From: Endocalyx cinctus
Lineage: Eukaryota > Ascomycota > Sordariomycetes > Amphisphaeriales > Apiosporaceae
Assembly: GCA_001600455.1 (NCBI GenBank)
Contig: BCKC01000005.1
Coordinates: forward strand, 2,542,001-2,606,000
Reading direction: 5' to 3'
Length of the DNA stretch: 64,000 nt
Shown: piece after piece, positions 2,342-64,000 of the stretch
Position numbering within the stretch: the first letter of the stretch is position 1
Layout of the letters: the number at the start of each line of letters is the position of its first letter
Position numbers and translations under genes: made by a program
Notes under the pieces: model-generated
Seen by the model: the letters and a program-made list of their open reading frames with translations, nothing else
Databases searched by the model: none
What the model was told of the DNA's origin: nothing

Positions 2342-2410
2342 ATGTCTAACGACAACTTTTTGCCCTTCACTATTCTCCAAATGTCATGCCATCTCATCCC
2401 GTCGACATGA
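2342..2410 (+). promoter_or_regulatory. Upstream ORF overlapping the histidine kinase start
   Basis: An ATG at 2342 opens a 22-codon frame that stops at TGA 2408-2410, past the proposed kinase ATG at 2386 and out of frame with it. A second in-frame ATG of the same small frame lies at 2381, five bases before the kinase ATG. If the mRNA starts upstream of 2342, ribosomes would meet these ATGs first, so the overlap could lower kinase translation. Whether the leader includes this region is not known from sequence alone. Confidence 0.4.
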
Positions 2411-5400
2411 CACCTCCTAATGACACTTACTTTTCCAATCATGACCAATTTCCTCCCACCTCCGTTACCACCTCTTCCTTCACCTCGAACCCCTCTTCAC
2501 TACCTCAAAAGAATGATTCTTTCCGGATGAATTCGCCTATGATCAAAAGTCAGGCCCCCGTCCTTCAAAGAGTAGACCTTTCGTCCACCCAGCATGGACC
2601 TATACTACCCGCCCGCAACGAAAGCTTATTTCTTCGAGACCCTTCTTCCCCCGCCCCCGTGCCTTCTTCCTTACCGCCCAAGGGGAAACGCTCCGCCTCG
2701 GCGAGTCCCTTCAGGTTGCCAATGCCTTGCATTTCCCCCGGTCAGCTCGCCTTCTCGGCTTTGCAGTTCCTCCCCGTCCCCATGCTGGTGCTGAACAACC
2801 TGAAGACGGTCGTGATGGCGAATGACGCCATGGGAAGGATGCTCGGCGAAATAACAACCTCGCGCGAAGGAGAAGACGATCTCGATATCACCGACAAACT
2901 TCGAGGTCAGACGCTAGCACAGGTCGGTATTGACCTTATACAAAACGGTAGGCTTGTATGGGTGTCCTGGGAATCGTTACTAGACGAGCTCGTCGTCGAG
3001 ATGGGTACCAAATCAGCTCACGAAGCCCCCGTTTTGAACGGAGATCAACAACACCTCGGTGAATCCCCCGCCGCGAGAGCCCCGAGGACCAGGTCTCCGG
3101 CCGGTAATCGTCTGGGAAATTCCTCGTCCAACTCCGTAGTCGACGTCGTCGTAACTTCGAAGAACTTCGATAAACCGATAAACAAGAAAGCGTCCCGGTC
3201 CGAGCGACAAGTCTACGCCAAGATGATCATCACCATATTCGAGATCGAAGATCGCCAGACGTACTTCACCTTGACCTTCACCAGCGCCGAATCGGCACCT
3301 GCTCCCCCGTCGGAGACGCGGATCAAGATCGCGCGGACCACGACCCTCGAAGCTGTCGAGCGAAAATCCATAGCACACTCTAACCCCTCGTCCATCGGCT
3401 CCAGTCGTGACTCTAATTCGCCCTCGTTCCGGTACAGTCCCGCGTCCGTCTCGGTATCGTCGAGCCCTTTCCCTCCAATGGGCCCTCCTTCCCGCCTATC
3501 CCCGTCGAGCACGCCGTCGGTTCTCCAGAAGATGACCGTGATCAAAGATGCTTTATTAGATAATACCGAAATGCCCATATTGGCTATGTGGAAGGACGGT
3601 AGCGCCCCGGTCTTTAACAGGGCTGCCCGGGAGCTGTTCATGAACTGCAACGGTATCGAATCTCTCGAAGGGTCTGATCTGCTGACCCGATGGGAAGTAT
3701 GGTCGGATGATTTCTCGTATAAGTATACCGAATCCGAACTCCCTATCGCCGTTCTTCTACGCGACCAAAAACCGATGTCGGGCTGGCGAGTGGGTATGTA
3801 CGACAAGAATAAAGACCGCCGGATCGTTTTCGACGTGCTGGGAGAGACGATCACGGATGATTCAACCGGCGAAGTTGTTGCGGCAGTTGTCACTTGCCGG
3901 GACGTGACCGGTATGGCGGAGGAGATTGAACAGATCAAGGAAGCCGACGAGGAGAGATTCAAGCTCATATGCGACACCATGCCCCAGATGGTTTGGACCA
4001 CGACTCCCGACGGACTTCACGACTTCTTCAATAATCGATGGTACGACTATACCGGCTTGTCGCCGGAAGACTCGCTCGGCCACAATTGGAAAAATCCGTT
4101 TCACCCAGATGACATGCCTGCGACGATTAAAAGATGGAAGCACAGTTTAGCTACGGGCGACCCGTACTGGACCGAATATCGTTGTCAAAGCAAAGAAGGT
4201 GATTGGAGGTGGTTCTTAGGTCGAGCTCTCCCCCTCAAGGATAAACAAACGGGGAAAATTGAGAAATGGTTCGGCACTTGCACCGACGTGCACGAGACGC
4301 TCGAGGCCAAACTGAATGCAAAACAAACGAGGGAACAGCTCCTAAGCGTCCTTACTCACGCACAAACCACCATCTTCTCTGTAGATCGCGACTGCAAAGT
4401 GACGATGTTAGAAGGAGCATTGATATGGAATGACAGACGAGGAAGCACCACACCCGACAGCAATATAAGTGATCCCCTCGAGTCGAAGCCCGACCCCCAG
4501 AAATACCTCGGACGAAATGTCGATGAAGTATTCAACGATCTAAATCCTCGGTTGCGCCACGGTGAAATCCCAACGTTCCTCCGGCCGGTCAAGGATATCC
4601 TAGCTGGCCAACAGTGTCAGGATACCGTCCATGAACACACAATCGGTGGGTTGTGATATGTCCCAAGAGATAAATGCTGCAGCGCTAATCCAATCACAGA
4701 TAATCATTTCTACCGTACTAGATTTATGCCTCTGATCGCCAGGAAATCGAAGGATGGACGTTCTAGTCAGACGGTTGTCTCGGGCGTGATCGGTGTTATC
4801 ATGGACATTACTGAATTAAAGGAGAGAGAACAAGATCTCGAGGAGCAAGTCAAAGAGAAAAGACAACTCAAAGCTAACGAGGCTGCCGCCAAAGAAGCTA
4901 GTCGGCTTAAGAGCCAGTTCTTAGCAAATGTGAGTGGGTTGGTATAGAGGGCAGGAAGCCAAGGTGATACTGACCGTGTTTATAGATGTCGCACGAAATC
5001 CGAACACCCATAACCGGGGTAATCGGCATGGCTGAACTGCTACTCGATTTACCACTTGGAGAGGAGCAGCGGGAATATGCGCAGAATATAAGTCGCTCGG
5101 CAAACGCTTTGTTGACGGTGATTAATGATATTCTCGACTTCTCAAAGGTAGAATCTGGCCGACTTGATATCGAGGAGGTACAATTTTCCTTATCGGTGGT
5201 AGTGCAAGACGTCTCCAAAATGCTAGGATTCGCTGCGGATAAAAAGAACCTCGATTTTCGGTCCGATATTGCACCGGATATCGAAAATGACCTTGTCGTC
5301 CTGGGTGATCCCGGTCGTGTTCGCCAGATCATCACAAATCTTCTGACCAATAGTATCAAGTTTACAAACAACGGATACGTGAAATTCTCGGTTTGGAAAG

Positions 5401-6890
5401 ATAAAGAAACTAGGGATAGTATTGAGATCAAGTTCGTTGTCGAAGACACAGGCATAGGGATCGAGGAAGATGTCCGGAGAAAATTGTTTCAACCGTTTAG
5501 TCAGGGTGACCCATCCACAGCGAGAAAATTTGGCGGGACAGGATTAGGACTCACGATATCCAAGAACCTTCTTGATCTCATGCACGGAAGAATTGACCTC
5601 CAATCTTCGGTAGGCAGCGGCACCACTGCAACGTTCTGGATCCCGTTCCTCAAGCCTCAAACAACGGAGAAATCTTCGTTGGTCGAAACGGGACGACTAC
5701 CAGATCGATTACAATCTGAAATGAGCGTCTCTTGTACCAGCTCAGAGCACGATAATATTTTAGGGACTCCACCAGCCTCCGGTGAGCTGTCGGCAATTTC
5801 TCCAGATAAGTCAGGATTGCCCCCGCGGCGGTCAAAATCACTCCACCTACCTTCGCCTTTCGCCTTCGAGAACGAGGACCTTCCGATGCCTGAGCGTGCT
5901 AGAATGCAAGTTCTGGTGGTTGAGGACAAGTAAGTAAAACATGTTTCTAGCTCCGCAGGCATTCAAGCTAACTCTGTCTGTCCCAACAGCGCTATTAATC
6001 AACAAATAGCGACGAAGACTATAAAAAAGCTTGGATTCAACGTGTGCGCGGCGTGGAACGGGAAGGAGGCTCTCGATTACCTCGAAGCGTCTAGGGACGG
6101 TAAAGTACCTAAACCTGACATCATTCTCATGGATGTTCAGATGCCAGTAATCGACGGCTACAAGTGCACGCACATCCTCCGACATCACATCCCGTATAAA
6201 ACATTCATCGACGACGTTCCCATCGTCGCCATGACGGCCTCGGCAATACAAGGCGACAGGGAAAAATGCTCAAAGGCTGGGATGGACGATTATCTTGCCA
6301 AGCCTGTCAAAAGGAAAACATTAGAAAAGATGCTTGTGAGGTGGGGTAGAATGCGACGGAAAACAATTCCCGGTATACCAGTGCCCCCACATCCATCTTC
6401 GGAATGTTCGGAGACGGCCAACCGCTGCTTCAGCGCAGATATACCCACGGTCGGTCTTCCTTTAGACATGTCGCTTGAGATTCCGGGAGATAATCGGTGG
6501 CCAGATAATATCACGTACCCAGCGAGTCCAGGTGCCACGTCAAGCGATCTGCATCTCAGCCCGTTGACGCCGAGACCCCCTCCGGCGATGAGGACGAGAT
6601 CCAGAGAGGTGAACCCGTTCGCGATCGGTGCCGTGCAGCCGGTGCGACAACTAGATAACAATGAATTAGCGATGCAGCTCAGGGATGACAAACTTATGGA
6701 CGCGGCCGGGGCCGGGGCAACGCAGAACGCGGTCGGTGGTGGAAGCAAGTTGCCGGTAATGAACCCCCATCACCGCAGTCATCACCATCATAATTTACCG
6801 ACGGTCTACATGGAAGGAGATTCACTTACAGAAGAAAACGTCGAGAAATTAGAGAAGCAACAAAATATGGATTCAGTTCCGATGATCTAA
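2386..6890 (+). CDS. Multi-PAS hybrid sensor histidine kinase / response regulator
   Basis: Four exons by splice consensus and frame continuity: 2386-4645, 4700-4929, 4986-5929, 5990-6890, giving 1444 residues. After a Ser/Pro-rich N-terminus come a PAS-like segment (about 115-165), a second at 390-505, a clear PAS/PAC at 520-645 (WTTTPDG, NNRWYDYTG, HPDD), a weaker one from about 650, a short coiled coil, then the HisKA box MSHEIRTP with phospho-acceptor His833. The ATPase domain shows the N box (NLLTNSIKF, 948-956), DTGIG (984-988) and GTGLGL (1014-1019). The receiver domain has the ED pair at the exon 3/4 junction, phospho-acceptor Asp1193 in MDVQMP and Lys1249. The tail is Pro/His-rich and probably disordered. 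Role: cytosolic phosphorelay sensor feeding an HPt protein and downstream regulators (known for the family). No membrane segment is seen. The Catlett group could not be fixed from memory. The signal sensed is unknown. Confidence 0.93.
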
Positions 6891-55850: not shown

Positions 55851-57219
55851 TTCTAAATAACCTCTCGAAGCTTTTGTATTCTTATCTGTTGCTTGTTCTT
55901 TTCTATCAATGGATCCGATTGGGAAACAAGGGAAAGTGAATAATAATGCAATTAAAGCACACTGTGTTATTCCTACGCCATTAGAATATAATTTGAAGCT
56001 TATGACCTAGATAATTACTGTATTATACGAATAAGTTCGCAACTACCTATATCATCGCGGAGATTTTGAGGGAATGCAAAGGGCATAGATAATATGGTTT
56101 TCTGGCTTTATGTAATTTTAATTCAGTAATTTGCTTTGCGGGAGTTAAATTATCAACATTCGTGGAGGCAGTGAGCGCAAGATACCTTATGCCGATGAGT
56201 GTGACAGTGATTATGTCGATCAGCTCTCACGTAACTCTCGAGAAGAGGAAAACTACAAAAGACACCACCACGCAAGTGCCATAAAAAACAACTATTGAAT
56301 TCTCCTTTAGTAATGAGTTTTGAACCTCTGTTGTCGTCTTTATCATCTTTTATCATAATCATAATGACCAATCTGGATGATCTTTTTGATGATGGATATC
56401 TGACTGCACTAGCTGCTATAACCGAGCCTGAAATATTATATGAAATTGATTACCGAAAAGTCACAACGCGGTAGTTCTACACGTACTTATTTAGTAATAA
56501 ATTCCGAGTTATTGGGGAGTTGTCAAGCTTTTTTTTTTCTTCTCTCTCTTCTTCCACGCTTACTACCCATCACTTAGGCAGAGAGTGATCTGGTTCAAGA
56601 GATAAGTGCAATTTCCTAGGGGGTTTACATCCTGTCCTACCCTCATTTTCTCGCTATATGAAACTTTTCCTTTTTAGACGACATATTCATACACGTCGCT
56701 TTCAACTCATCCATTTCGGTACCGGGTTACAGCTTACACAACCAGGTTCGACCCCACCTTACCGCTATGTAATCATGAATTCTATCTCCAACTCTCTATA
56801 TTTTTTTATTGGTAAGAAACAGGGGGAAATCAGTCTGTAGTGGCGTCTTACAAGTATATGAACGATGTCATCGTGAGGTCTTCAATACGACATGCCGGAG
56901 GAGGAGGGGGCCACGGTTATATTATGGAGAGTGAAATATCTGGCTTAAGAGCTGAACTCTTAAACGACGCTTACATTCCTGTATCAACCAAATCATACTT
57001 CGGGCCTGTGCTATAATTGGCATATTACAGCATGGGGGCCTTGATAAATACCGCGATGCTACTGTGGCGCTGGCTGCGCTTTAATCTACAATCAACTATC
57101 TGTTAAAGGGGGAATTATTAATACTTTGATAAAGTAGGCCTTTCATCGTATTCCTTCCAATCCTTAATACATAATTTCGTCTTTAATATCTTAGCATCTG
57201 AATATTCAATCTCAAGGCA
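55851..57219. other. Intergenic region upstream of the membrane protein gene
   Basis: No gene recognised. It separates the sterol reductase remnant from the plus-strand membrane protein gene and should contain that gene's promoter. Short open frames show no family resemblance. Confidence 0.5.
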
Positions 57220-59264
57220 ATGGACTCGACGACCAGGTTGGGTTCCAAAAGGCTACTGCCAGAACCTCCTTTTAGTGCCGATAAGTCAAAGCTTGATAAG
57301 TCAGGAAGGAATGAACTTAGCCAGCATGAAGGGAAGAGAGCGCGCAAAGCACAATCGTCTCTACCTGGAAGAAAGAGGATAATAATAGTCAACTCGATAT
57401 TATTCTTGCTCGGAGCTTTAACCTTCTCGATATTCAGCAGCTTCATTATTCGCCAAAAGGCGAATGCTAGGTGGGCCCACAACGATGTTTTCAACCCCTT
57501 ATGTACCGATATTTTGAGCGACCGGGCAGAGCAGGTATTTGAGCTCGACTTAAGCTTCGGGAATTTCACCTTCACCCAAGCCAAAGTCATCGACATGACA
57601 TGGGATACCATCGTAGGCCAAGGTGGTCGACTTCTCCACGGTTGGATACTCTACAGCACAGTCATCCACCGCCTCTTAGTCTTTAGCATGGAAACCTCGA
57701 GTGTATCACTTCATCATTACGCAGTTGTTTCATTTTCGCAGACGTCTTTAGCGAGCCTCTGGGTGACACTTACCAGTTTAGGCGCTGAGAAGAGTCCCGT
57801 CGTTATCATCTGCACGAGCGCTCTCTTATACTCGCTGACGTACACCCTAATCTTTCCCATCATCTGGAGCGCAGCTACCGGTTATCTCAGCTTGTCGCAT
57901 CGTCTCTACGCGATGCCCTCGGGAGATATTATCCCGCTCAACAGCGAAGATTTAAGCCTTTGCTGGGTACTAGATCCCAACAGACTGAATTTGACTGATT
58001 ATATTCGAGTCGGTCCGAGCTTCAATCATCTGATGACCCTCCCTAAGTCCGTTCCGGATGCCGAGCTATGCTTGAATATATCGCAGCCTATTACAGATGG
58101 CAAACGGGTGTCTTTCGAGACGCATACCCTTCATTACAATTATGGAGGCTGGGTACCATCAACCAACACGACAGTCTGGGATTACATCACTCCCCAGTAT
58201 TCAAGCAACTCGGACTTCTACGACATACATCATTGTAAGCACACACCTTTCTTTTTGTCTCAATTTACCGAGTTTTTTTTTTTTTTTCATGTTTATTTAC
58301 ATATTTAGATGCTCTGACTGCTCAACGACTCCGCATTGCCCTGAACCCGCAAGAGTGGCTGCAGAATCCATACAAAACTTCTTTAGACCTACCAATTCAT
58401 GATAACAATTCGACGACGACGGTAAACTGGCTTGGACATAATTGCAAGACGGCAAAAACACCGTTTCTATATAATGAGATGAAAGCTTTACAGCTATCGC
58501 GTATCGTTTCGCCTTACCAAGAACAAGCAACACCTGATGATCTTGTTAACTTCGAGCTTGGAGACGGGAGGTGGGCTCATTTTACACTCAACCAAACCGT
58601 ATCAAAAAAGAACGGCCAAATACCGTATAACTCGTCGCTCGTCCTCTACAACCAGGAGCGTTCAATACCAGCTCCCTTCCTCGATGTCGGACATAATTGC
58701 TCCGGGGATACCGAGTTTACGAGCCTAGGAAACTGCGTTTGCTACAAAGGCGAGCCTATCTCTCCTTACTTGCTGAATCGCGAAAAGGCCGTCTGCAACA
58801 CCGCGCCCGGGTACGTCTGGGGCTTCTCGTCGTCTCTAACGGGCCTTGGGATGGTCCTGGAAGCCTTATGGATGGTCTGCTGCCTCGTCTCGTACCTGAT
58901 CCTATCCATCAAAAGCGACATGATCCACAGAGAACCAATAAAGAGCGGTGGACCTCTAAGATTTACCGCCGACTTTTCACGGTCCGTGGAGGACGCTTTA
59001 GGGTCAGGAGTACGAGATATGTCGGAAGATAGCCTGGCTCGACGCCTAAGAGGCTTCAGAGTGTCGTATAGATTCAACAGAGCTGATAAGAATCGACGTC
59101 ATCTCAAATATCGCCTCGTGACGCGCCAGGAGGTTCTAAGACGAACGCGTTTCAATGAGCGCCTTGAAAAAATATTTGGTCCTATCAACAAGAAAGTCGA
59201 CCCGGTGGTGGATGCGATAATAAGATTGTATAATATGATTAAGTATCGACTTTTTCGCAAATAA
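57220..59264 (+). CDS. Uncharacterised fungal multi-pass membrane protein
   Basis: Two exons, 57220-58234 and 58309-59264, giving 656 residues. The 74-base intron has a GTAAGC donor and a TTTAG acceptor and restores frame exactly. A basic N-terminus (to about 50) precedes a first membrane segment (about 53-76, IVNSILFLLGALTFSIF). Other hydrophobic segments lie near 187-215 (VVIICTSALLYSLTYTLIFPIIW) and near 520-550 (WGFSSSLTGLGMVLEALWMVCCLVSYLILSI). A long, Asn-glycosylation-rich middle domain (NLTD, NISQ, NTTV, NQTV, NSS, NCSG) with Cys residues looks extracytoplasmic; the C-terminal 110 residues are strongly basic and probably cytoplasmic. I do not recognise a named family or enzyme. It lies between two pseudogenes and upstream of an NLR, suggesting an accessory region. 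Surface sensing or anchoring is only a guess. Confidence 0.8.
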
Positions 59265-60790: not shown

Positions 60791-63700
60791 ATGTCTAACC
60801 AGGCTGCGGGAATCAAGCCTCATCTACCGCTAGATCAATACACCGTCGGCTGGATCAGCGCCTTACCTATCGAGCACGCCGCAGCGGCCGAATTGCTGGA
60901 CGAAGAACATGAACCGCCGAATCTTCAAGATAACGAGTCCATTATATATACTCTTGGTCGGATGCGAGGCCATAATGTCGTAATCGCCTGCCTTCCCGCC
61001 GGATCTACGGGGATTTCCTACGCCGCAGACGTCGCACGGGGTCTGATCACCCGTTTTACCAACGCCAGAATCGGCCTTATGGTAGGCATAGGAGGTGGAG
61101 TACCGTCGGAGGATGCGGACATTCGTTTAGGGGACGTGGTCATCAGTCAACCTGGCCACGGCGAGGGCGGCGTGGTTCAATACGACATGGGGAAACGACT
61201 GCCAAACGGAATTTTCGAACATACAAGCCATCTCAACGCTCCTCCACAAATTCTACTGAGTGCCATCAGTCGAGTACGGTCGAATTGTGACCGAGGGCGG
61301 TCCGTCTTTCCCAGCTTTCTTTCCACGCTAGAATGTCGTCCAAATTTCCGCCGGCCCGATACGCAATCGGACCAGTTGTTCCAATCGCGCTATCTGCATC
61401 AAAAGGGGCCTGGTTGTTCGAAGTGCAGCAAGGAGGAATTGATCGACAGAGATGATCGCTCCGCGCACGAGACCGTGAAATTTCATTACGGCGCGATTGC
61501 ATCGGCAAATACTCTAATGAAAGATGGAGAGGAGCGGGACCGAGTATGTCAGCAACTGGGCGGTCATATTCTTTGCTTCGAGATGGAGGCGGCTGGGCTG
61601 ATGAACACTTTCCCATGTATCGTGATTCGCGGCATTTCTGACTACGCCGACTCCCATAAGAATAAAAAGTGGCAAGCTTTCGCGGCCGCGACGGCTGCTT
61701 CTTACGCGAAAGAAATTCTCTCGGCCGTTCCGCCCCAAGATGTCGCCGGTTTGGCCCCAGTCATGGCTCCAGTCACAGGTACGCTATTGATCCAAGAAGT
61801 TAGTATCGCATGAAGATTCAATCGGGGTCTATGAGGAAAATGAATTCCACAATCATATTCTGTCACTCCATTAAATATCGTACTGACTTGTGAGACTTGG
61901 CAGCCCCTTGGGGAATAAGATTTCTTAGAAATAGTTCTTTTACCGGCAGAAATGACATTATTCAACGTCTCCACGGTCTGCTAGAGAATCCAGAGCAGCA
62001 TCCATCTGTCGCTGTCCATGGTTTAGGTGGTTGCGGGAAGAGCGCGCTTGTTGTCGAGTTTGCTTATCAGGCTCGTGAAAAGAATCCTAACCTCGCTGTA
62101 TTCTGGGTCTCCTCATTCACACCGCAGAGATTCCAAGAGTCATATCGAGATATCGCGAGACTGTTAAATATTTCTGGCGCCGATGACTTAAAAAAAGACA
62201 TGCTTGACCCCGTTCGAAGAAGGCTTGCCGAAGAGTTCCAAGGGAGGTGGCTGATGATCATCGATAATGTAGACGACTTGAGCGTCCTCCTTGACACGAA
62301 GGCCAGCAATCGTCGGCTATATGATTATCTCCCAGTCAGTCACTGCGGGATGATCGTTTTCACCACTCGTGTCCACAAAATTGCCACGGATCTTGCAAGG
62401 ATTGATGCTTTACGTTTGGGCCAGATGAATTCTGACGAGGCAAAAGAGCTCTTACGCAAGTCTTTATATAGTATTGAACTACTAGATCAAGAAGACCTTG
62501 TTGACAGGCTGCTGAATTTGCTAGTGTACCACCCTCTCGCCATTATTCAAACCGTGGCATTCATGAACAAGAATTCTTGTCCCTTAGGGAAATACGTAGA
62601 GCTCTTTGAGAGCTCTAAATTAGAACTACTACGGCAACATTTCACTGATATTACACGTTTTGAGGACTCCCATAATGCGGTTTATGCAACTTGGCTGATT
62701 TCTTTTCGCCAAATCAAAGAGACCGATCGACTTGCAGCCACTTACCTTCAGTTTTTGGCCTGTATAGCTCCACAAAATATCCCACACACAATATTACCAC
62801 TGGAAGGAACCGATGTCGAGAAAGAAGACGCCATTGGTACTCTGCTGAGTTATTCTTTCTTGACGAAACAAAAAGACGGCGGATATTTTGACATCCACCC
62901 TCTCGTCCATGCAGTCATTCAGGAATGGCTGAAAGAGGGGGAAGAATGGGTAAGGACAGCTCAGAAAGTGGTTCGACGATTAACACAACTCATCCCCTAC
63001 GGTGGATTTCAAGAATACGAGAAGTACTCCAGATATCTCCCACACGGGATATTTACAGTAAATATACAGGGTCTTGTCGGCGATAAACCTACAATTGATT
63101 TGCTGGAAAGAATTGGGGAATGCTATACGTACCTTGGACGATACAGGAATGCCATCTCAGCGTTTACGGAGGTCGTCGAACGCACGAAGCAGACTATGGG
63201 AGAGAAGCACAAAAAAACTCTGATGGCCATTAATAATCTAAGTCAAGCATTGGCTTATCATCAAAGTCTTCATGAGGCAGAAAATAACCAACAGAGAGTC
63301 TCCAACTTGGCAATCGAACTGTTGGGCGCCGAACACCCCTATACATTAGCATGTATAACTACTCTAGTTATGATACACATGAAACAAGGCCGTTGGAAAG
63401 AAGCCGAATTGTTGGCCACACGATTAGTAGAGATAAGACAAAGAGTCCTAGGACGCGAACATCCCATTACATTGGCTAACTTAGATCTCTTAGCTTTAAC
63501 GTACTGGAAACAAGGCCGCTTTCAAGAAGCCGAGTCGTTGGAGGTACAGGTAATAGAGGAGGCAAAGGCAGCACTGGGCGATGAGCATCCCACAACGTTA
63601 TATATCATGATTCATTTGTCTAGGATGTACAGAGATCAAGGTTGTTTAGAAAAAGCCGAATCATTAAACGTACGTGTTATGGAGACGCGTAAAAGGGTAC

Positions 63701-64000
63701 TAGGAGTCGAGCACCCCCATACGCTGGGCTCGATGAATGAACTATCTCAAACGTACTGGAGCCAAGGACGTTGGAAAGAAGCCGAGTCGTTAAATATACA
63801 TGTTATAGAGACGCGTAAAAGGGTACTAGGAGTCGAGCACCCCCATACGCTGGGCTCGATGAATGAACTATCTCAAACGTACTGGAGCCAAGGACGTTGG
63901 AAGGAAGCCGAGTATTTATACTTACTGACAATAAAGGCGAGAAAAACAGCATCCGGAGTCGGTCATCCATCTACGCTGGCCGATATGTCCAATTTAGCGT
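60791..64000 (+). CDS. NOD-like receptor: nucleoside phosphorylase - NB-ARC - TPR (partial at right edge)
   Basis: Exon 1 60791-61778 and exon 2 61904 onward, joined by a 125-base intron (GTACGC donor, GGCAG acceptor; frame preserved). The reading frame stays open to the window end, giving at least 1028 residues. Residues 15-310 are a PNP/UDP phosphorylase-superfamily domain: VGWISALPIE, GIGGGVP, LGDVVIS, HYGAIASANTLMK, FEMEAAG (263-269) and ISDYADSHKNKKW (282-294, probable base-binding Asp). The NB-ARC domain has P-loop GLGGCGKSAL (369-378, Lys375), Walker B LMIIDNVDD (446-454), IVFTTR (480-485), YHPLAI (538-543) and IHPLVH (660-665) at the MHD-like position. From about 726 there are at least six or seven 42-residue TPR units with LGxEHPxTL and QGRWKEAE cores. 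Known for the class: fungal NLRs act in non-self recognition and programmed cell death. The phosphorylase domain is the probable effector. The C-terminus is not seen. Confidence 0.92.
63676..63927 (+). repeat. Near-identical 126-base tandem repeats inside the TPR array
   Basis: Two adjacent units of 126 bases (63676-63801 and 63802-63927), each encoding one 42-residue TPR. Bases 63682-63776 and 63808-63902 are identical over 95 positions. The upstream TPR units have diverged much more, so these two look recently duplicated or homogenised. The unit length is divisible by three, so copy-number change keeps the frame. Confidence 0.9.

What the first reader, a model, noticed from the sequence alone, without database searches (positions are those of the whole stretch)
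60791..64000. NLR with a nucleoside phosphorylase effector-like domain
Seen: PNP-superfamily domain with FEMEAAG and ISDYADS motifs, fused to an NB-ARC with intact P-loop and Walker B, then TPRs. Known: PNP-NB-ARC/NACHT-repeat proteins are a class of fungal NLR, and related PNP domains are ATP-degrading immune effectors in bacterial defence (Detocs), with relatives reported in eukaryotic immune proteins. Inference: on ligand-induced oligomerisation this protein could deplete a nucleotide pool as a heterokaryon-incompatibility, antiviral or antibacterial response.
Basis: partly seen in the sequence, partly recalled or inferred. Interest (0 to 1): 0.8.

Follow-up and report, generated by a model that had tools for sequence, protein, structure and literature searches.

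The report
Fungal immune receptor with nucleosidase head
This is an intact fungal immune-receptor gene that joins a nucleotide-cleaving enzyme head to an apoptosome-like switch and a repeat sensor; the class is already known, and this is a clean new member whose head looks like a hydrolase rather than a phosphorylase.

The parts
60791..61778 (+). Exon 1: residues 1-329 and the first base of codon 330; carries the PNP/nucleosidase head
60872..60874 (+). E28, equivalent of E. coli Mtn E12 (DeoD and Udp have Arg)
   Evidence: Alignment; Glu in 120, 114 and 120 of 120 relatives in three sets, 6 rows of the second set not aligned here
61586..61588 (+). E266, equivalent of Mtn E174
   Evidence: 119, 119 and 120 of 120
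61640..61642 (+). D284, equivalent of Mtn D197
   Evidence: 119, 119 and 117 of 120
61193..61195 (+). K135, in a Y[DE]xGK motif; candidate polyphosphate contact (inferred)
   Evidence: Lys in 115, 116 and 117 of 120; gap in Mtn
61535..61537 (+). R249; candidate polyphosphate contact (inferred)
   Evidence: Arg in 120, 120 and 116 of 120; Leu in Mtn, but Arg in AMN
61658..61672 (+). K290 to W294 of the DYADSHKNKKW stretch; K290 candidate polyphosphate contact, W294 at the place of Mtn F207 (inferred)
   Evidence: Lys 118, 118, 118 and Trp 120, 120, 118 of 120; Ser and Phe in Mtn
61397..61426 (+). H203, C209, C212: conserved His and CxxC in a stretch inserted relative to MTANs; metal site possible, not tested
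   Evidence: C209 and C212 in 49 of 50 rows of A1, H203 in 90% or more; in nine own-genome heads H203 and C209 9 of 9, C212 6 of 9
61779..61903 (+). Intron, 125 bases, GT...AG, phase 1
   Evidence: junction agrees with P0157 and P0134; no transcript seen
61904..64000 (+). Exon 2, in-window part; it continues to the stop codon ending at 64254 (L008:4255)
61963..62568 (+). NB-ARC domain as matched by Pfam; the winged-helix part follows
   Evidence: PF00931 36.4 bits; structure matches to CED-4, Apaf-1 and plant resistosomes
62020..62043 (+). P-loop GLGGCGKS
   Evidence: G39, G41, G42, G44 and K45 of the exon-2 alignment invariant in 36 of 36 rows
62248..62277 (+). Walker B WLMIIDNVDD
   Evidence: W115, D120, D123 invariant in 36 of 36 rows
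62893..62910 (+). IHPLVH, in the place of the MHD-type motif (label recalled)
   Evidence: H331 and L333 of the exon-2 alignment invariant
63085..64000 (+). TPR solenoid, in-window part; the array continues past the window, with 42-residue anchors at residues 762 to 1056
   Evidence: model pLDDT mostly over 90 here; 4y6c, 4y6w and KLC1 matches
63649..63913 (+). Recent tandem duplication of a 126-base (42-residue) TPR unit, 94% matches
   Evidence: L008:3650-3914

Best explanation
An NLR-type regulated-cell-death receptor of an ascomycete. The TPR solenoid senses a ligand, probably a variable self or non-self molecule (inferred). This lets the NB-ARC/winged-helix switch exchange its nucleotide and oligomerise as CED-4, Apaf-1 and plant resistosomes do (inferred from the fold). 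The gathered heads then act as a nucleosidase that hydrolyses the bond between base and sugar of an adenine nucleotide, most likely ATP and dATP, and so arrest or kill the cell (inferred from relatives). Shown here: gene structure, domain order, folds of the models, catalytic residues, family. My odds: 0.97 that it is a PNP-type fungal NLR, about 0.85 that the head is an active hydrolase, about 0.65 that ATP or dATP is its main substrate.
For: Domains and intact motifs. Head with MTAN fold and the three catalytic residues of Mtn, kept in relatives. Switch and repeat folds. PADLOC match to a PN-superfamily effector model (58.3 bits). Bacterial relatives of the head sit in proteins with NB-ARC/TPR (P0330, P0332, P0336), NACHT, STAND, TIR, SIR2-like or helicase domains. 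Literature passages: Detocs PNP cleaves ATP to adenine and ribose triphosphate (PMC11249213); a review calls the fungal NLR domain family ATP-hydrolysing (PMC12881547); hetA with PNP_UDP and NB-ARC is a het gene confirmed by expression of the alternate allele (PMC11138114); NLR repeat-number polymorphism in Podospora (PMC4986451). Recalled: Rousset et al. 2023 report ATP nucleosidase activity for eukaryotic homologues (not held).
Against: No activity, transcript, expression or population data. MTANs, the nearest solved relatives, act on MTA and SAH, not ATP. One own-genome relative (C1, L044) has Asn for the catalytic Asp, so loss of activity occurs in the family. NACHT also passes its cut-off on exon 2.
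Confidence: 0.7

Rival explanations
1. Same receptor, other substrate: the head hydrolyses MTA, SAH, adenosine, AMP, NAD or a signalling nucleotide, and works by signal removal, a released product or methylation stress rather than ATP depletion.
For: Closest solved folds are MTA/SAH nucleosidases and futalosine hydrolases, and the catalytic triad alone does not choose the 5' group.
Against: Residues at the places that differ from E. coli Mtn (K135, R249, K290, W294, K307) are shared with bacterial conflict-type heads; Trp replaces Phe207, which caps the 5' group in MTANs (recalled). Reported activities of the immune family are on ATP (passages).
Confidence: 0.25
2. A pseudoenzyme: the head only binds a nucleotide or serves as a scaffold in the oligomer.
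For: One relative in the same genome lost the catalytic Asp (L044).
Against: This copy keeps all three catalytic residues, as do nearly all aligned relatives.
Confidence: 0.06
3. Not an immune receptor: a kinesin light chain, as many relatives are named, or a metabolic enzyme with regulatory tail.
For: Many relatives carry the name kinesin light chain in databases; the TPR part does resemble KLC1 and KLC2.
Against: The TPR likeness covers only the C-terminal part; an NB-ARC switch and a PNP head precede it. The genome has several PNP heads on different switches and repeats, which fits a receptor family, and hetA shows an incompatibility role for the PNP/NB-ARC make-up (passages).
Confidence: 0.03

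Closest known systems
PNP_UDP / NB-ARC / TPR class of fungal NLRs (PMC4986451; PMC12258605, with 145 PNP_UDP_1 NLRs of NB-ARC type in Sordariales; passages only)
   Same: Domain order, NB-ARC with TPR, near-identical repeats
   Different: Nothing found that sets this gene apart as a class; it is one more member, from an unnamed ascomycete
hetA of Aspergillus fumigatus (PMC11138114, passages)
   Same: PNP_UDP head in both alleles, NB-ARC predicted in one; allorecognition shown by expression of the alternate allele
   Different: Sequence not compared here; TPR repeats are not mentioned in the passages seen
Bacterial PNP / NB-ARC / TPR proteins (P0330 named as from Blastocatellia; P0332 and P0336 unnamed)
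   Same: Same three parts by Pfam, same catalytic residues and most of the signature (P0330, P0332)
   Different: Bacterial; no fungal insertion with H and CxxC in the rows aligned
Detocs PNP effector (PMC11249213, glossary passage)
   Same: PNP-type effector, said to cleave ATP
   Different: Detocs is a three-gene two-component system; here the head is fused to an NLR body
MTA/SAH nucleosidase (E. coli Mtn, PDB 4l0m, 1zos)
   Same: Fold and the three catalytic residues
   Different: Insertion of about 60 residues, shared basic residues, Trp for Phe207, fusion to an NLR body

Membership tests
Fungal NLR (STAND receptor) | Effector domain, NB-ARC or NACHT switch, superstructure-forming repeats in one protein | tested here: met
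   PF01048, PF00931, TPR_10, all over their cut-offs; the joint of exons 1 and 2 is by splice signals and relatives, not by transcript
Fungal NLR (STAND receptor) | Intact P-loop and Walker B | tested here: met
   Walker B reads IIDNVDD, not the DD of the NB-ARC rule nor the NACHT rule D[GAS]hDE quoted in PMC12258605; the family itself has DNxDD
Fungal NLR (STAND receptor) | Ligand-driven oligomerisation leading to cell death | not testable with these tools
   Needs experiment
MTA/SAH-nucleosidase-like hydrolase | Fold | tested here: met
MTA/SAH-nucleosidase-like hydrolase | Catalytic E12, E174, D197 | tested here: met
   E28, E266, D284
Nucleoside phosphorylase of DeoD/Udp type | GDPxR phosphate-binding loop | tested here: not met
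   SALPIE stands there, Glu for Arg; role of the loop recalled
Immune ATP nucleosidase | Cleavage of ATP or dATP to adenine and ribose triphosphate | not testable with these tools
   Needs assay; residue likeness only
Detocs | Three-gene two-component system with sensor kinase and receiver partners | tested here: not met
   Head is fused to NB-ARC/TPR; Pfam finds no kinase or receiver in exons 1 and 2, in two upstream frames (57202-59261) or in one of two downstream frames of at least 150 aa. Kinase and receiver frames do lie 54 kb upstream (2350-6887). A Detocs sequence was not compared
Heterokaryon-incompatibility gene | Polymorphic alleles that trigger incompatibility | not tested
   One genome only; no strain data

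The most novel reading that the evidence does not exclude
The set K135, R249, K290, K307 with W294, shared by fungal and bacterial conflict-type heads and lacking in E. coli Mtn, is the polyphosphate pocket that turns an MTA-nucleosidase fold into an immune ATP nucleosidase. Since MTANs are dimers in which the partner chain lines the 5' site (recalled), NLR oligomerisation would complete the active site and so switch the head on. The signature would then predict from sequence which of the thousands of PNP-headed receptors destroy ATP.
Probability: 0.35. Interest if true: 0.5.

Novelty: new member of a known kind. Interest (0 to 1): 0.3.

Why it matters
It is a complete PNP-NB-ARC-TPR receptor in a genome that holds eight further PNP heads on other switches and repeats, a good set for testing how fungal receptors carry out cell death. 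Reading the head as a hydrolase and naming a residue signature make the open question of its substrate directly testable. The class itself is known, so the gene as such is not surprising.

Tried and rejected
Close bacterial homologues by pattern scan of genome contigs gave one locus (L042), in a record named a Deltaproteobacteria MAG; its neighbouring frames look fungal to me by eye (no family search), so I treat it as contamination, not transfer. tblastn of exon 1 on plasmids found 2 of 72,556 records, both Leptolyngbya boryana; that protein led to the bacterial set. The bacterial set is therefore biased towards heads like the fungal one; the best 120 of 277 were examined, one of them (P0242) being 100% identical to the query stretch. 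'Fungal' and 'bacterial' rest on the names where a source gave one; many rows have none.

Motif counts: a first regular expression (DxxDxxKxxxW form) found 118, 117 and 76 of 120 in the three sets; a second, anchored count located 119, 114 and 118 of 120; the alignment-based counts replace both. In one search, six full-length fungal rows have no residue aligned at E28 and two bacterial rows none at D284-W294 (at D284 one more has Asn); these stay in the denominators of 120. One search used 7 of 240 fungal rows, 10 of 120 bacterial rows, P0241 itself, this gene and four E. coli enzymes. AMN shows Arg at the R249 column and Lys at the K292 column, so R249 alone is no marker. K292 was dropped from the signature: Lys in the fungal sets, mostly Asp in the bacterial one. 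E. coli Mtn and the chains printed are the only MTANs whose residues I saw.

A partner receptor for the free-standing C8 nucleosidase with a Ses_B-like tail was sought within about 10 kb by two patterns of mine; the first missed even the known tail, the second found only the gene's own tail. The own-genome comparison used 9 of 11 loci; two short fragments were left out. I could not place the conserved Lys and Arg in the model: no coordinates are given out. No paper describing the signature was seen, but it was not itself a search term and the library is open-access only. Rousset et al. 2023 was not held; what I say of it is recalled.

Full report
What is there. The window is C5:2542001-2606000 of a 44.76 Mb, 15-contig genome. 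Named best relatives (Pseudomassariella vexata, Truncatella angustata, Xylariales sp. PMI_506) point to an ascomycete. The gene begins at 60791; exon 1 ends at 61778, a 125-base GT-AG intron follows, and exon 2 runs from 61904 to 64254, 254 bases past the window's end. The protein has 1112 residues and no inner stop. Relatives such as P0134 and P0157 run across the same joint. No transcript was seen.

Domains. Exon 1 matches PF01048 at 41.8 bits; exon 2 matches NB-ARC at 36.4 bits, NACHT at 33.0 bits and TPR_10 at 227.6 bits. Exon 2 also passes the cut-off of NCBIfam FxSxx_TPR, a model of bacterial proteins (341.1 against 300 bits). The repeats keep an exact 42-residue step from residue 762 to 1056, eight anchors, the last ones weaker; one 126-base unit is duplicated with 94% matches. 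Repeat-number polymorphism is reported for fungal NLRs (PMC4986451, passages), and a Podospora protein with nearly identical TPR-like repeats is solved (4y6c, 4y6w).

Phosphorylase or hydrolase. Aligned with named E. coli K-12 enzymes, the head has Glu at the place of Mtn E12, where DeoD and Udp have the Arg of their GDPxR loop; E266 and D284 match Mtn E174 and D197. Two entries are titled as Glu12Gln and Asp197Asn mutants of E. coli MTA/AdoHcy nucleosidase (1z5n, 1z5o), in keeping with catalytic roles. The chemistry expected is hydrolysis of the bond between base and sugar. This agrees with the cleavage of ATP to adenine and ribose triphosphate reported for Detocs PNP (PMC11249213, passage) and corrects the word phosphorylase in the finding.

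A shared signature. By pairwise alignment in the best 120 of 7997 exon-1 relatives, the best 120 of 6858 full-length relatives and the best 120 of 277 bacterial-type relatives: K135 is Lys in 115, 116 and 117; R249 is Arg in 120, 120 and 116; K290 is Lys in 118, 118 and 118; W294 is Trp in 120, 120 and 118; K307 is Lys in 118, 97 and 97, mostly Arg otherwise. E. coli Mtn has a gap, Leu, Ser, Phe and Leu there. Likeness was selected for: the bacterial set came through one plasmid protein found with the fungal query. Still, these heads sit in proteins with NB-ARC/TPR, NACHT, STAND, TIR, SIR2-like or helicase domains, the setting in which PNPase effectors of bacterial conflict systems are described (PMC8195603, passages). 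I read the set as a candidate polyphosphate site; that is inference, and the residues were not placed in space.

Surroundings and kin. The exon-1 query finds 12 matches in 11 places of the genome, this gene included. Pfam on the frames nearby gives PNP and TPR on C10 (its NB-ARC-like part by similarity only, with one stop inside the match), PNP with NB-ARC on C4, PNP with NPHP3_N/NACHT-type switch and ankyrin repeats on C1, C3 and C11, PNP with NPHP3_N pieces on C9, and PNP without a switch in the frames seen but with a weak Ses_B tail on C8. One further C3 place has a partly withheld stretch downstream, and two are short fragments. The C4 head itself scores just under the Pfam cut-off (24.1 against 25.1). 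In nine heads E28 and E266 are kept in 9 of 9, D284 in 8 of 9, R249, K290 and W294 in 9 of 9. PF01048 also finds a C6 gene that I take for the housekeeping methylthioadenosine phosphorylase by eye. No kinase or receiver partner was seen in the frames scanned beside this gene.

Known or new. PNP_UDP is among the commonest effector domains of fungal NLRs (PMC4986451, passages), 145 PNP_UDP_1 NLRs of Sordariales are of NB-ARC type (PMC12258605, passages), and hetA of Aspergillus fumigatus, with PNP_UDP in both alleles and NB-ARC predicted in one, is a het gene confirmed by expression of the alternate allele (PMC11138114, passages). Reviews already link the fungal domain to ATP-cleaving bacterial effectors (PMC10197012 and PMC12881547, one passage each). 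So this is a new member of a known kind. Ligand-driven oligomerisation that switches on an ATP-directed nucleosidase is the best reading; its last steps rest on relatives and on recalled work (Rousset et al. 2023, not held).

Noticed in passing
L048 (G000 C8), frame 512-1621, tail near 1562: A PNP head with no switch in the frames seen ends in a tail with a weak Ses_B match (19.9 bits, under the cut-off of 23.2), like the amyloid-type motifs reported on PNP_UDP effectors (PMC9815663, passages). No partner motif was found within about 10 kb.
   Followed up: partly
window 61397-61426: A conserved His and CxxC in a stretch that is inserted relative to MTANs and absent from the bacterial rows aligned; a metal site is possible.
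   Followed up: partly
window 2350-6890: PAS, histidine-kinase and receiver domains lie in three open frames; the kinase frame (4986-5933) and the receiver frame (5934-6890) follow each other in one frame with a single stop between them. A broken or misread hybrid histidine kinase; described only.
   Followed up: no
L054 4720-7617, Leptolyngbya boryana plasmid AP018204.1 (BAY59304.1): A cyanobacterial plasmid protein annotated as hypothetical has two PNP domains and a STAND-type ATPase part, followed by four genes annotated as TPR proteins.
   Followed up: partly
L042, NYXK01000071.1: A record named Deltaproteobacteria MAG encodes a PNP domain 54% identical to exon 1 with fungal-looking neighbours; probably contamination in that assembly.
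   Followed up: partly
hits: Many PNP-NB-ARC-TPR receptors are named kinesin, kinesin light chain or violaceus kinesin in databases, apparently from their TPR part.
   Followed up: no
L008:1904-4252 (window 61903 onward): Exon 2 passes the cut-off of the bacterial family FxSxx_TPR (341.1 against 300 bits), which hints at a bacterial origin of the NB-ARC/TPR body.
   Followed up: no
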